In this document: piece by piece, positions 12,220-16,895 of the stretch
Layout of the letters: every line of letters starts with the position of its first letter
How positions within the stretch are numbered: position 1 is the first letter of the stretch
DNA from: Fusobacteria bacterium ZRK30
GTDB lineage: Bacteria; Fusobacteriota; Fusobacteriia; Fusobacteriales; Fusobacteriaceae
NCBI GenBank assembly: GCA_024628785.1
Contig: CP102405.1
Coordinates: 744,001-808,000 of the forward strand
Direction of reading: 5' to 3'
Length of the DNA stretch: 64,000 bases
Position numbers and translations under genes: made by a program
The notes under the pieces: model-generated
Databases searched by the model: none
What the model was told of the DNA's origin: nothing
Seen by the model: the letters and a program-made list of their open reading frames with translations, nothing else

Positions 12220-12651
12220 TTGAGAGTTATAATTGTATATTTTACATTAATAACAACTGTATTTGCCATTAAATTAACAGATGGGAATTATTCAGTTGTG
12301 GAAAATGTGGTAAGGGGAAAAAAATGGAGAACCAAGGTGGATTTGAGGGTGAAAAACAATCAAATTGACTGGATAGATGTAGATATGGTAACTAAAGAGG
12401 GAAAGTTAATTAGTCAGGATAAAAAAGACTTGAAGGTAGTTTTAAAGGATACAGGGGGAATAGATCCATATGCAGAACTACCTAAAGAGTATATGAAAAA
12501 ACTAAAAGAAGTTAGAAATTATAAGATGTCCAGGGTAGATACCATAGCAGGAGCCACAGCTGTCTGTAATAAATTTAATAAGATGACTGTGTTTTTGATA
12601 AAAAAATCTGAAGAGGGGAAAACAGGTAACTTTGAAGGTTGGTTTCATTAA
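12220..12651 (+). CDS. Secreted FMN-binding-domain protein 1
   Basis: 143 residues from a TTG codon at 12220 that follows GGGGGAAGA; no in-frame ATG lies nearby. A short signal peptide (VIIVYFTLITTVFA) is followed by a small FMN_bind-like domain: LTDGNYSV, KNNQIDWIDVDMV and, near the C-terminus, DTIAGATAVCNKF. The D-x-x-A-G-A-T element matches the site where ApbE-type flavin transferases attach FMN to Thr in RnfG and NqrC. Here that Thr lies at about residue 110. It is the first of three tandem paralogs ahead of rnfC and probably carries FMN outside the cytoplasmic membrane. Confidence 0.8.
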   Translation: MRVIIVYFTLITTVFAIKLTDGNYSVVENVVRGKKWRTKVDLRVKNNQIDWIDVDMVTKEGKLISQDKKDLKVVLKDTGGIDPYAELPKEYMKKLKEVRNYKMSRVDTIAGATAVCNKFNKMTVFLIKKSEEGKTGNFEGWFH

Positions 12652-12678
12652 GAGTAAATTATAAAATAGGAGGAAGCT

Positions 12679-13143
12679 ATGAAGAAAATAATATTATATC
12701 TAATTATGGCAACAAGTATTTTAGGAGCGCAATTGATGGATGGACATTATGTAGCACAGGAAGCCAAATATTATGCAGATGGATATGCGGCAATTACCAG
12801 TATCAGGGTAAAAAATGGTGAGATAGTAGAAGTGGTAGCAGATTTGGTAGATAGAAAGGGTAATTTAGTCAGTGAGGATAAAAAGTATAATGAGGAGATG
12901 AAGGCTGTAACAGGAACTGATATGAAAGAATTTTCAATGAGAGTCCCTGAAAATTTTATGAATTCATTGAAAGAAAGAGATACTATGGGAGGGACATCCA
13001 TGGAAAACGTGGATTTTCAGATGCCATATATAGATACTATTGCAGGTGCTACCAGTTCCAGTAAAAAATTTAAAAAGATGATGAAATTTTTGGTAAAAAA
13101 GGCTGAGTCTGGAGATACAGGAAAACATAAGATTAAATTATAA
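12679..13143 (+). CDS. Secreted FMN-binding-domain protein 2
   Basis: 154 residues with a type I signal peptide (LYLIMATSILGA, cleavage near 17). The mature protein repeats the pattern MDGHYVAQ, TSIRVKNGEIVEVVADLV and, at about 118-124, DTIAGAT followed by SSSKKFKKMMKFLVKKAESGD. GAT is the expected flavinylation motif. The first 45 or so coding bases are nearly identical to those of the next gene, so this is a recent tandem duplication. Spacing to the genes before and after is 15-30 bp, in line with co-transcription with rnfC. Confidence 0.85.
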   Translation: MKKIILYLIMATSILGAQLMDGHYVAQEAKYYADGYAAITSIRVKNGEIVEVVADLVDRKGNLVSEDKKYNEEMKAVTGTDMKEFSMRVPENFMNSLKERDTMGGTSMENVDFQMPYIDTIAGATSSSKKFKKMMKFLVKKAESGDTGKHKIKL

Positions 13144-13158
13144 AAATAGGGGGAGTTT

Positions 13159-13608
13159 ATGAAAAAAATAATATTATATCTAATTATGGCAACAAGTATT
13201 TTAGGAGCACAATTGATAGACGGGGAGTATTTTGTACAGCAAGATGAGTATCCCCATGGATGGGCTTCAACAGCAGGTATCAGGGTAGAAGATGGAAAGA
13301 TAGTGGAAGTTAGGACTGATAAGGTGAATAAAGCAGGGGAATTAGTCAGTGAAAATGTAGAATATAGTAAGAGGATGAGGGCTAAATCAGGAACTGATCC
13401 TAAGGAATATTCGGTAGTACTGACTGAAAATTTTATGAAAGAATTGAAAAAAAATGATGGTATGAAAAGAAAAGATGATTTTCGAATGCCTGAGATCGAT
13501 ATTGTAGCAGGGGCTACAAGTTCAAGTAAGAAATTTAAAAAGATGATGGAGTTTTTAGTGGAGAAGGCAGAATCTGGAGAGGTTGGAGATCACAGGATGA
13601 AACTATAG
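13159..13608 (+). CDS. Secreted FMN-binding-domain protein 3
   Basis: 149 residues, a close paralog of the preceding gene with the same signal peptide sequence and the same ordering of motifs: IDGEYFVQ, AGIRVEDGKIVEVRTDKV and DIVAGATSSSKKFKKMMEFLVEKAESGE. The Thr of GAT (about residue 119) is the likely covalent FMN site. It differs mainly in surface residues of the middle, which suggests distinct partners or potentials; that is inference. It ends 17 bp upstream of rnfC with the RnfC ribosome binding site GGGGGGAGG in between. Confidence 0.85.
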   Translation: MKKIILYLIMATSILGAQLIDGEYFVQQDEYPHGWASTAGIRVEDGKIVEVRTDKVNKAGELVSENVEYSKRMRAKSGTDPKEYSVVLTENFMKELKKNDGMKRKDDFRMPEIDIVAGATSSSKKFKKMMEFLVEKAESGEVGDHRMKL

Positions 13609-13625: not shown

Positions 13626-14906
13626 ATGTTTTTTAAGCCTACATTTTTCAGGGGGGGAATCCACCCCAGAGAGAAGGAGATAACTTCCGATAAAAAGATT
13701 GAAAAGATGCCAGAGGTGGGGACTTACAGAGTAACGACCCTGCAGCATATAGGTGTCCCTGCAGCTGTTATAGTTAAAGTGGGGGATCGAGTAAAAAAAT
13801 ACCAAAAAATAGCTAGAGCAGAGGTGAAATTTTCTGCTTTTATTCACTCTCCCTGTTCCGGGAAAGTTACACAGATAAAAAAAATTCATATAAAGGGAAG
13901 GGAAGCAGAAGAGATAACTATAGAAAATGATTTTTTAGGAGAAGAATTTAAGAGGGAAAAACTGCAGAGTTTTACTCCTGAAAAATTACAGGAATTGGTG
14001 GATGATTTGGGGATAGTAGGTCTTGGAGGAGCTACCTTTCCTACCCATATCAAACTGGAAGGAAAATTAAAAACTATCATAATAAACGGTGTTGAATGTG
14101 AACCTTATTTAAACGCTGATAACAGAGTAATGATCGAGAATACAAATGAAATCTTAGAGGGGATAAAAATCCTTATGACAACATTTGAGATGGAAGAGGG
14201 AATAATAGGCATAGAGGAAAATAAAGCCCAGGCCATTGAAAAAATGGAAGAGGCTGTAAAGGAATACCCAGAGATCAAGGTACAAAAATTGCCAACTATA
14301 TATCCCCAGGGGGGAGAAAAACAGCTTATAAAAGCGTTGTTGAAAAAAGAGATAAAATCTTTTCCAAGGGAGATAGAGGCTGTAACTTTAAATGTAGGGA
14401 CTATTTTGGCTATCTATAGGGGAGTAACCTATGGAACACCAATAGTTGAGCGTATAGTTACAGTATCTGGAGAAGGGATAAGAGATCCTAAAAACCTGTC
14501 TATTCCTATAGGAACTCCCATAGAAAACATTTTAGATTATGTAGGAATTAAAGAAGATACAGTGACTAAAATAATAGCTTGCGGACCTATGATGGGTCAT
14601 GAAATAGGGGAAACAGATGTTACTTCTAAAGGAATGAATGGAATTTTGGCCTTAGGAAAGGAAAAATTTCCTCCGAAATTACCCTGTATAAGGTGTGGCA
14701 GGTGTGTAGATGTGTGTCCTATGGGACTGCTTCCCCTGGAATATGACAGACTGGCAAAAAAAGGGAAGTATCATCAGATGGAAAAAGAATTTTCCCTCTC
14801 ATCCTGTATAAAGTGTGGCAGTTGTGAATACATATGCCCTAGTCAGGTTCCTCTGATGGAAGCTATATTTTTAGGATTGGAAAAGGGAAGGGATGACCAT
14901 GATTAA
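13626..14906 (+). CDS. rnfC: RnfC-like NADH/ferredoxin electron-transfer subunit
   Basis: 426 residues. It has the RnfC N-terminal barrel (FFRGGIHPREKE, LQHIGVPAAVIVKVGDRVKKYQ), the NuoF-like FMN/NADH region (GLGGATFPTHIK at about 137, INGVECEPYLNADNRVM at about 155, YPQGGEKQLIKAL) and two C-terminal [4Fe-4S] sets CIRCGRCVDVCP and CIKCGSCEYICP (about 357-405). RnfC is a peripheral cytoplasmic subunit passing electrons between NADH or ferredoxin and the membrane part. It overlaps the next gene by 14 bases. RnfA, RnfB and RnfE are not found nearby, so this is not a complete Rnf operon. Confidence 0.92.
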   Translation: MFFKPTFFRGGIHPREKEITSDKKIEKMPEVGTYRVTTLQHIGVPAAVIVKVGDRVKKYQKIARAEVKFSAFIHSPCSGKVTQIKKIHIKGREAEEITIENDFLGEEFKREKLQSFTPEKLQELVDDLGIVGLGGATFPTHIKLEGKLKTIIINGVECEPYLNADNRVMIENTNEILEGIKILMTTFEMEEGIIGIEENKAQAIEKMEEAVKEYPEIKVQKLPTIYPQGGEKQLIKALLKKEIKSFPREIEAVTLNVGTILAIYRGVTYGTPIVERIVTVSGEGIRDPKNLSIPIGTPIENILDYVGIKEDTVTKIIACGPMMGHEIGETDVTSKGMNGILALGKEKFPPKLPCIRCGRCVDVCPMGLLPLEYDRLAKKGKYHQMEKEFSLSSCIKCGSCEYICPSQVPLMEAIFLGLEKGRDDHD

Positions 14907-16425
14907 AAGAGCTCCTTATATCAGTTCAGAGAATACAACTCAAAATCTTATGATAGAAGTTGGTATAGCACTTTTTCCATGTGCGGCAGTGAGTATCTAT
15001 TTTTATGGAATAGCAGCAGTAAAGATCCTGTTGGGAACGGTAATATTTTCATTTTTTACTGAAATTTTTTGGCAAAATATAAAAAAAGAACGAACTAAAG
15101 ATGGAAGCAGTATAATAGCCGGGTTGATTTTGGGGCTGTCTCTTCCATCCACAACTCCATTTTATGTAGCAGGAATAGGAGGAGTTGTAGCTGTTTCAAG
15201 TAAATATATCTTGGGAGGGCTGGGAAAAAATTTATTTAATCCGGCAATCTTAGGAAGATTATTTTTAATGATACTATTTCCTATGTACCTCTATCAGGTA
15301 AATAACTTTGATGGAACTGCCGGAGTATCCCTCTATCCTATTATAAAATATGGGGGACTGACTAAAATCATAAGTGACTTAGGAGAACCTTTATTTTATA
15401 GGGATTTAATCCTGGGAAACAGGCTGGGAAGTATAGGAGAAAGTTCTATAATAGCAGTCTTTTTAGGGTATGTTTATCTGGTCTATAAAAAATCTATAAA
15501 ATGGGAGGGGCCGGTAATTTTATTGGGAACAATATATGTATTGAACAGTTTTGTTTCTCCTAATCCATTTTTAACTATGATTCTAGGGGGGGGATTATTT
15601 GCTTCGGTATTTATAGCTACAGATCCCGTTACCAGCCCATATACAAGGCTGGGATATACCTTCTATCTGGTATTGATGGGAATCTTTATTTTTGGAATAA
15701 CTGAATTTACCAGCCAGCCCACAGGGATAACCATGGGGGTATTAGGAGCAAATTTAATGGTTCCCATAATCAATAGATATACTCCAAACAGGATTTTTGC
15801 AAGATCCTATCCCTATATTAAACTTGTAAAAATGATCCTGATCAGTGTTTTAGCTGTAATGGGAGGATTTTATGCAATTACCTATAAAAGTGAAGATGTG
15901 ATTCCTAAGGGGATAAACTATATAAATTTGAGAAAATATTTTGGAAGTGATGTGGAGTTTGAGGATAAAATAATTGTGGATGGATTTATCTATTATCCCC
16001 TAAAAAAAGATGAACTGGATATAGGAACTTATGTTGTAGGAGACTCTAAGGGATATGGAAAGGAAAGGATAGGTTTTGATCTGGCTATAGATACAGAACA
16101 TAAGATAAAAGGACTGACAATAATTCATGAGAAGGAAACCTGGAGGTTGGGAGACCAGATCTCTTCTTCCTACTGGCAGGATCAGTGGATAGGAAGGGAC
16201 AGCAGCTATAAGTTTAATAAAGAAGTAGATGGATTTTTAGGAGCTACATATACCTGTAAAAACCTGCATAAAACCTTAAGAAAAATCTTGAAAACTCATG
16301 AGGGGCTTTTTGATAGTGGTTATTCTGAGATAGACGGAACCGGAGGAGCTACAGATATGGAAAAGACAACAACAGATCCAGATGAAACTATGGATATAGA
16401 CGGAGTCGGCGGAGCTACAGACTAG
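14893..16425 (+). CDS. rnfD: RnfD-RnfG fusion with extra GGAT motifs in the C-terminal tail
   Basis: 510 residues. Residues about 1-330 are RnfD: about ten membrane segments, SSIIAGLILGLSLP, KNLFNPAILGRLF, GNRLGSIGESS and IATDPVTSP. The place where RnfD normally has its covalent FMN motif reads DGTAGVS (140-146), with Ser in place of Thr. Residues about 335-470 form an extracytoplasmic FMN_bind domain like RnfG, with DGFLGAT (Thr 452). The tail then holds DGTGGAT (Thr 487) and DGVGGAT (Thr 509). A second ATG at 14899 has better spacing to GAAGGG and may be the true start. It overlaps rnfC and is followed by a NuoE-like gene. Confidence 0.88.
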   Translation: MTMIKRAPYISSENTTQNLMIEVGIALFPCAAVSIYFYGIAAVKILLGTVIFSFFTEIFWQNIKKERTKDGSSIIAGLILGLSLPSTTPFYVAGIGGVVAVSSKYILGGLGKNLFNPAILGRLFLMILFPMYLYQVNNFDGTAGVSLYPIIKYGGLTKIISDLGEPLFYRDLILGNRLGSIGESSIIAVFLGYVYLVYKKSIKWEGPVILLGTIYVLNSFVSPNPFLTMILGGGLFASVFIATDPVTSPYTRLGYTFYLVLMGIFIFGITEFTSQPTGITMGVLGANLMVPIINRYTPNRIFARSYPYIKLVKMILISVLAVMGGFYAITYKSEDVIPKGINYINLRKYFGSDVEFEDKIIVDGFIYYPLKKDELDIGTYVVGDSKGYGKERIGFDLAIDTEHKIKGLTIIHEKETWRLGDQISSSYWQDQWIGRDSSYKFNKEVDGFLGATYTCKNLHKTLRKILKTHEGLFDSGYSEIDGTGGATDMEKTTTDPDETMDIDGVGGATD

Positions 16426-16448: not shown

Positions 16449-16895
16449 ATGGATCTACATAAAGAGGTAGAAAAAATTATAGAAAATTTAGAAGATAAAA
16501 ATAATGAATTAGAGGTGTTGGAATTTATTCAAAATGCCCAGGGGTATATATCTAAAGATATGGTAAAATTTGTTGCAGATAAGATGGATAAATTTGATTT
16601 TTCTATTGAGAATACAATAAAATTTTACCCCCATCTGAAGGATGAGGGGAAACAAGTCATAGAAGTCAAGGTATGCACCCATACAGCCTGTAAAAATAAT
16701 GGTAGCGGGAAGATATTGGAGGAAGCTAAAAAAATATTGGGAGTAGAGATAGATGGAATAACTTCTGATGGAAAATACAAATTGATGACCCAGAGATGTT
16801 TTGGTCAGTGCGGAAAGGGTCCTAATGTGAAGGTTGGCAGTGAGATCTATAATAAGATGACACCTGAGATACTGGGTAATTTATTAAAAAAATAG
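16449..16895 (+). CDS. NuoE-like [2Fe-2S] thioredoxin-fold protein
   Basis: 148 residues. The N-terminal helical part (LEVLEFIQNAQGYISKDMVKFVADK) and the C-terminal thioredoxin-like ferredoxin part match the 24-kDa subunit family. Cluster ligands are visible as C-x4-C (VCTHTACKNNGSG, about 77-82) and C-x3-C (RCFGQCGKGPNV, about 119-123). In complex I and in bifurcating hydrogenases this protein pairs with a NuoF-type NADH-binding subunit. RnfC contains a NuoF-like domain, so pairing with the RnfC two genes upstream is a reasonable inference. It has its own AAAAGGAGAGG box. Confidence 0.9.
   Translation: MDLHKEVEKIIENLEDKNNELEVLEFIQNAQGYISKDMVKFVADKMDKFDFSIENTIKFYPHLKDEGKQVIEVKVCTHTACKNNGSGKILEEAKKILGVEIDGITSDGKYKLMTQRCFGQCGKGPNVKVGSEIYNKMTPEILGNLLKK

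What the first reader, a model, noticed from the sequence alone, without database searches (positions are those of the whole stretch)
16310..16425. Two extra GGAT flavin-attachment-like motifs in the RnfD/G tail
After the RnfG-like domain (DGFLGAT, Thr 452) the tail holds DGTGGAT (Thr 487) and DGVGGAT (Thr 509, one residue before the end), within a linker rich in Thr/Asp. The two units also share a near-identical DNA phrase (ATAGACGGA...CGG.GGAGCTACAGA), so they come from a short duplication. If ApbE accepts these sites, the tail would be a flexible multi-flavin wire.
Basis: partly seen in the sequence, partly recalled or inferred. Interest (0 to 1): 0.75.

Follow-up and report, generated by a model that had tools for sequence, protein, structure and literature searches.

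The report
Repeated flavin-attachment tags in Rnf tail
In these anaerobic fusobacteria, a membrane electron-transfer protein ends in a floppy tail with two or three short sequence tags that look like the sites where the enzyme ApbE attaches flavin cofactors; evolution keeps the tags while the rest of the tail changes, so the tail probably carries flavins as a loose electron relay, something not described for this protein family in the papers I could search.

Summary
The RnfD-RnfG fusion (14893-16425, 510 aa) has its normal RnfG flavin site at Thr452. Its 56-residue tail holds DGTGGAT (Thr487) and DGVGGAT (Thr509). Apart from the catalytic motif of PurL, these are the only DGxGGA[ST] DNA matches in the 3.6 Mb genome.

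Eight of ten fused RnfDG proteins in Fusobacteriota, including Ilyobacter polytropus at 37% identity, carry one to three such motifs in otherwise dissimilar polar tails. Position 4 varies only G/A and the acceptor only T/S, as ApbE sites do. Within the window's genus the D-G-_-G-G-A-T codons show 0 amino-acid-changing versus 52 silent differences, while the middle residue varies freely. The canonical RnfD site is itself spelled DGKGGAT in some relatives. Every tag-bearing genome has ApbE. Published work shows that a 7-residue terminal tag suffices for ApbE.

I conclude these are genuine, domain-free ApbE sites, probably a flexible flavin relay from an RnfC-RnfDG complex to three adjacent periplasmic PplA-like flavoproteins. 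Flavinylation and electron transfer are inferred, not shown. It is a new variant of multi-flavinylated proteins.

The parts
14893..16425 (+). RnfD-RnfG fusion protein, 510 aa, with tagged C-terminal tail
   Evidence: PF03116 res. 4-302 (E 7.7e-68), FMN_bind res. 392-466 (E 1.3e-9); TIGR01946/TIGR01947 below their cut-offs
15310..15330 (+). Position of the canonical RnfD flavin site, here degenerate: DGTAGVS (Ser146)
   Evidence: Alignment to solved RnfD 7zc6/9eri; same DGTAGVS in G055 and G056, while g9/g11 orthologs keep DGLAGAT, DNQAGAT or DNVTGAT
16228..16248 (+). RnfG FMN_bind flavin site DGFLGAT, Thr452
   Evidence: FMN_bind match; motif located
16333..16353 (+). Tail flavin tag 1, DGTGGAT, Thr487
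16399..16419 (+). Tail flavin tag 2, DGVGGAT, Thr509 (penultimate residue)
13626..14906 (+). RnfC-like NADH-side subunit, overlaps the RnfDG start by 14 nt
   Evidence: TIGR01945 457 bits, over the curated cut-off
12220..12651 (+). Small secreted FMN protein with DTIAGAT site, PplA-like
   Evidence: NF041941 E 8e-13 (far below the family cut-off, C-terminal domain only); sequence
12679..13143 (+). Small secreted FMN_bind protein with DTIAGAT site, PplA-like
   Evidence: PF04205 over cut-off, NF041941 E 5e-20 (below cut-off)
13159..13608 (+). Small secreted FMN_bind protein with DIVAGAT site, PplA-like
   Evidence: PF04205 over cut-off, NF041941 E 8e-26 (below cut-off)
16449..16895 (+). NuoE-like [2Fe-2S] thioredoxin-fold protein, next gene; possible partner of RnfC, membership in the module uncertain
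   Evidence: PF01257 E 2e-30; conserved in G055, not seen beside RnfDG in g9/g11

Best explanation
The tail of the RnfD-RnfG fusion is a natural series of flavin tags: short ApbE acceptor peptides (DGxGGA[TS]) in a disordered extracytosolic extension. Outside the membrane, ApbE adds FMN to Thr452 in the folded RnfG domain and to Thr487 and Thr509 in the tail. Electrons from NADH enter at RnfC, cross the membrane through RnfD and reach the RnfG flavin. The tethered tail flavins then pass them by diffusion and contact, like a swinging arm, to periplasmic acceptors, most likely the three small PplA-like FMN proteins encoded upstream. Shown here: motif presence, conservation, selection, rarity elsewhere in the genome, ApbE presence and gene context. 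Inferred: actual flavinylation, the electron path and the acceptor.
For: (1) Orthologs: tags in G055 (2), G056 (3), Ilyobacter polytropus and two congeners (3 each), G046 (2) and G047 (1), in tails with no other common sequence between genera (Ilyobacter identity). (2) Selection: within the genus the core codons D,G,G,G,A,T show 0 non-synonymous/266 sites against 52 synonymous/112 sites over all pairs of units; the free x position has 27 non-synonymous/48. (3) Variation matches ApbE: position 4 G or A, acceptor T or S; the only other core change in all 19 units is one G->S at position 2. (4) GGAT occurs at the canonical RnfD site in relatives (DGKGGAT). (5) ApbE, with a lipobox, is present in the own genome, and ApbE is present in all tag-bearing genomes. 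(6) Published: a 7-residue motif suffices and works best at N or C termini (PMC12052999); an unstructured C-terminal extension of FMN_red proteins is flavinylated at such motifs (PMC11334425). (7) The distal tail is 78% polar or disorder-prone and 17% hydrophobic. (8) RnfC and three PplA-like FMN proteins upstream.
Against: No flavinylation was measured. The tested ApbE consensus has S/T at position 4, not G; GGAT is known here only from natural RnfD sites not individually assayed. Two orthologs (G041, G045) have no tail tags. The three PplA-like genes sit beside RnfDG only in the window's genus; the Ilyobacter and g11 loci lack them, so the proposed acceptors are not general. Tail disorder rests on composition, not on a structure prediction.
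Confidence: 0.62

Rival explanations
1. The tail tags are flavinylated, but each tethered FMN docks into a preformed flavin pocket (for example the RnfD site whose own covalent anchor is degenerate in this genus, or a pocket of a partner protein), so the tail is an anchor rather than a relay.
For: RnfD site is DGTAGVS in the window genus. In FMN_red proteins a flavinylated C-terminal extension is thought to secure FMN in an existing pocket (PMC11334425). In Nqr/Rnf-like complexes the RnfD covalent site is also lost (PMC10979944).
Against: Ilyobacter and g11 orthologs keep a good RnfD site and still have 1-3 tail tags. Copy number varies 1-3 with variable spacing (27-90 nt), which suits a loose relay better than fixed docking.
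Confidence: 0.18
2. The tail peptides bind ApbE or metal ions without being flavinylated (ApbE recruitment handle, or Asp/Gly-rich calcium-binding loops).
For: Motifs are Asp/Gly-rich in an acidic tail, net charge -9 in the window and about -35 in Ilyobacter.
Against: Strict retention of a hydroxyl residue (T or S) at the seventh position and of A at the sixth is what an acceptor needs, not a calcium loop; the g11 tails are near neutral (net -3 and -4) yet keep the motif.
Confidence: 0.1
3. Chance or neutral leftovers of a local duplication of the RnfG site, with no function.
For: The units resemble the RnfG site DNA (69% over 29 nt) and each other (86%).
Against: 0 non-synonymous against 52 synonymous differences in core codons within the genus; motif kept in distant genera; rarity in genome and shuffles.
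Confidence: 0.03

Closest known systems
Multi-flavinylated FMN-bind proteins (Meheust 2021, PMC8238504; SaFMN3/CbFMN4, PMC10339131), including multi-flavinylated RnfG
   Same: Several ApbE sites in one extracytosolic protein, proposed for longer-range electron transfer; flexible linkers between sites; some attached to RNF
   Different: There each flavin sits in its own folded FMN-bind domain; here the extra sites are bare 7-residue motifs in a tail with no domain, and counting FMN-bind domains would miss them
ApbE-flavinylated FMN_red proteins with unstructured C-terminal extension (PMC11334425)
   Same: One to two ApbE motifs in a C-terminal extension, shown to be flavinylated
   Different: There the extension lies next to an existing FMN pocket of the same protein; here it follows a domain that already has its own covalent FMN site, and copies number up to three
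Engineered Flavin-tag (Tong 2021, described in PMC12052999 and PMC10722498)
   Same: Seven-residue DxxxGA[TS] peptide at a protein terminus, accepted by ApbE
   Different: Engineered label; here a natural, repeated and conserved version. The published tag motif has S/T at position 4, here G or A
Nqr/Rnf-like two-subunit complexes (PMC10979944)
   Same: RnfD and RnfG homologs without the rest of Rnf, lost RnfD covalent site (as in the window's genus), proposed one-way NAD(P)H-to-outside transfer
   Different: The cytosolic end is an RnfC protein here, not a fused NAD-binding domain; RnfD and RnfG are fused and tailed

Membership tests
ApbE flavinylation substrate | Motif D-x-x-x-G-A-[S/T] (general form) | tested here: met
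   Met by both tail units and all ortholog units
ApbE flavinylation substrate | Strict motif D-x-x-[S/T]-G-A-[S/T] | tested here: not met
   Position 4 is G or A in all tail units; but the canonical RnfD site of relatives also has G or A there and the window RnfG site has L, so the strict form does not define sites in this family
ApbE flavinylation substrate | ApbE encoded in the genome and extracytosolic | tested here: met
   One ApbE with lipobox LLLIGCGKK; ApbE present in every tag-bearing genome
ApbE flavinylation substrate | Acceptor site extracytosolic | tested here: inconclusive
   [quoted passage not shown] no topology test was run here
ApbE flavinylation substrate | FMN covalently bound at the Thr | not testable with these tools
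   Needs mass spectrometry or in-gel fluorescence
Multi-flavinylated protein as defined by Meheust 2021 | More than one FMN_bind domain | tested here: not met
   Only one FMN_bind domain in the protein; the extra sites are domain-free
RNF complex | RnfA, B, C, D, E, G encoded together | tested here: not met
   Only RnfC and fused RnfDG at this locus; a full set lies elsewhere in the genome (C2 about 694.9-700.1 kb; D and G, the others by sequence appearance)

The most novel reading that the evidence does not exclude
A natural, evolvable electron relay made of bare flavin tags on a disordered tail: no flavin-binding fold at the extra sites, copy number expanding by short local duplication in separate lineages, giving a swinging multi-flavin arm on a membrane oxidoreductase.
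Probability: 0.45. Interest if true: 0.8.

Novelty: new variant of a known kind. Interest (0 to 1): 0.62.

Why it matters
Surveys of flavin-based electron transfer count folded FMN-bind and similar domains. If bare seven-residue tags in disordered tails are natural flavin carriers, those surveys miss sites, and covalent flavins can be added to any exposed terminus during evolution. It would also be a natural precedent for the engineered Flavin-tag and a simple test case for whether solvent-exposed tethered flavins carry current.

Tried and rejected
Chance: rejected by shuffles, genome-wide pattern count and selection. PurL hit in the own genome: unrelated catalytic motif. Other phylum matches set aside as single or unrelated: DGYGGAS/DGFGGAS at the N-terminal strand of an FMN_bind domain in fumarate-reductase-like proteins of G051/G052, a transporter linker in G075/G079, and large surface-type proteins of G038 and G078. 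Leptotrichiaceae RnfD ORFs of 475-570 aa (L040-L045): no tail motif of the searched form. Named relatives through the search for related loci: no hits. Scan of 84,980 genomes for two close DGxGGAT copies: one hit only, a short tandem repeat in an ORF of a Lysobacterales MAG; the pattern fixes some codons (GAT first, GCA/GCT) and would miss Ilyobacter, so it shows rarity only loosely. Structure prediction was not run: the ortholog loci did not come from the sources that tool lists, and a lone-sequence model would say little about the tail. A tree of ten RnfDG cores could not settle whether tags arose once or more. Paper searches for tail or disordered flavinylation sites found no prior description for Rnf proteins; most subscription papers are missing from that library.

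Full report
What is there. The window lies in a 3.6 Mb genome (handle G000) whose relatives include Ilyobacter, so it is a member of the Fusobacteriota (probably Psychrilyobacter, which is my inference from genome size and kinship, not a test). The finding sits in an RnfD-RnfG fusion at 14893-16425, preceded by RnfC (13626-14906) and three small secreted FMN proteins (12220-13608), and followed by a NuoE-like gene. The locus has no RnfA, B or E; a separate rnf set and an nqr set lie elsewhere in the genome.

Thr452 is the normal RnfG site. Beyond it, the tail reads CKNLHKTLRKILKTHEGLFDSGYSEIDGTGGATDMEKTTTDPDETMDIDGVGGATD, with Thr487 and Thr509 at the ends of DGTGGAT and DGVGGAT. Exact DNA matches to DGxGGAT occur only at these two places in 64 kb (0 in 100 shuffles). 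In the whole genome the DGxGGA[ST] pattern adds only PurL, whose catalytic loop contains DGCGGAT. A relaxed form of the motif has 33 matches in the genome; the recognisable ones include the other RnfG, RnfD, NqrB and FMN_bind sites.

Orthologs. Ten fused RnfDG proteins were read from the phylum. Two congeners (87-88% identical) have two and three tags. Three genomes of one genus (35-37% identical), one of them Ilyobacter polytropus DSM 2926 by a 100% match of its 961,624-base plasmid, have three tags in a tail carrying about 35 net negative charges. G046 has two (DSEGGAS, DGEAGAS) and G047 one (DGEAGAT), the last one always close to the C-terminus. G041 and G045 have none; their tails are short. 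Nothing but the tags is shared between the distal tails of different genera.

Selection. Reading the 19 tag units codon by codon, all pairs in the window's genus give 52 synonymous and 0 non-synonymous differences in the six fixed codons, while the x codon has 27 non-synonymous differences over 48 sites. Pairs are not independent, but single ortholog pairs show the same direction. Across genera, position 4 alternates G/A and the acceptor alternates T/S; position 2 changes once (S). This is the pattern expected of an ApbE acceptor.

Is GGAT acceptable to ApbE? The tested motif has S/T at position 4, and the general form DxxxGA[T/S] is also used by the Flavin-tag authors. In three relatives the canonical RnfD flavin site itself reads DGKGGAT, where others read DGKAGAT. 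The window's own RnfG site has Leu there. So position 4 is loose in this family. In the window's genus the RnfD site is DGTAGVS (alignment, sequences), which may be weakly or not flavinylated: published single changes give about 50% with A-to-V and a 10-55% drop with T-to-S.

Mechanism. ApbE is encoded once, as a lipoprotein, and ApbE is present in all tag-bearing genomes. Short tags at termini are good ApbE substrates, typically giving full incorporation. The most likely picture is NADH to RnfC to RnfD to the RnfG flavin, then to tethered tail flavins, then to periplasmic acceptors. In the window's genus the three PplA-like proteins next door are the obvious acceptors; other genera lack them at the locus, so acceptors there are unknown. 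With 15-23 residues between tags in most species, contact by diffusion (a swinging arm) is more likely than a fixed wire; in G056 the spacing is 2-4 residues, closer to a chain. All of this paragraph beyond the gene content is inference.

How the tags arose. In Ilyobacter a 90-nt unit is tandemly repeated (89% over 90 nt); in the window the units are 66 nt apart and 86% identical over 29 nt; in G056 starts are 33 and 27 nt apart. Unequal units suggest lineage-specific expansion. The window units also resemble the RnfG site DNA (69%), so a first copy from that site is possible but not shown, because shared coding explains much of it.

Known or new. Multi-flavinylated proteins with several folded domains are known, and FMN_red proteins with flavinylated C-terminal extensions are known. 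A conserved, repeated, domain-free tag array on an Rnf-type protein was not found in the papers searched. I rate it a new variant of a known kind, with flavinylation itself still to be measured.

Noticed in passing
L095:1546-1872 and 1965-2288, L094:1603-1926 and 2023-2343, L096:1447-1770, L098:1426-1767, L033:4160-4708(-): A small family of secreted proteins or lipoproteins (Ilyobacter genus, G054, G041) carries an ApbE-like motif (DAQAGAS, DGYGGAS, DGLGGAS) just after the signal or lipobox, followed by about 75 residues with no Pfam match over cut-off; the G041 member has the unit twice and lies beside a tagless RnfC-RnfDG. D, GAS and the N two residues on are invariant. Possibly a new ApbE substrate family.
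   Followed up: partly
L032:8959-9997, L034:5713-6770(-), L035:7707-8764, L033:7652-8661: Two small membrane proteins follow RnfDG in Ilyobacter, g11 and G041; they look like very divergent RnfE/RnfA (one weak Rnf-Nqr match, E 0.007, below cut-off), and most copies have no cysteine that could hold the [2Fe-2S] cluster of RnfA/E.
   Followed up: partly
window 15310-15330: The RnfD covalent flavin site is degenerate (DGTAGVS) in the window's genus, the same clade that has extra periplasmic FMN proteins beside RnfC.
   Followed up: partly
window 16449-16895: A lone NuoE-like [2Fe-2S] gene directly follows RnfDG in the window genus; RnfC contains the NuoF-like Complex1_51K domain, so the two could form a NuoE/NuoF-like NADH module.
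   Followed up: no
L092:2986-3630: A Lysobacterales MAG ORF has an 11-residue tandem repeat SVDDGTGGATD; it is the only genome-contig hit for paired tags and looks like an unrelated short tandem repeat.
   Followed up: partly
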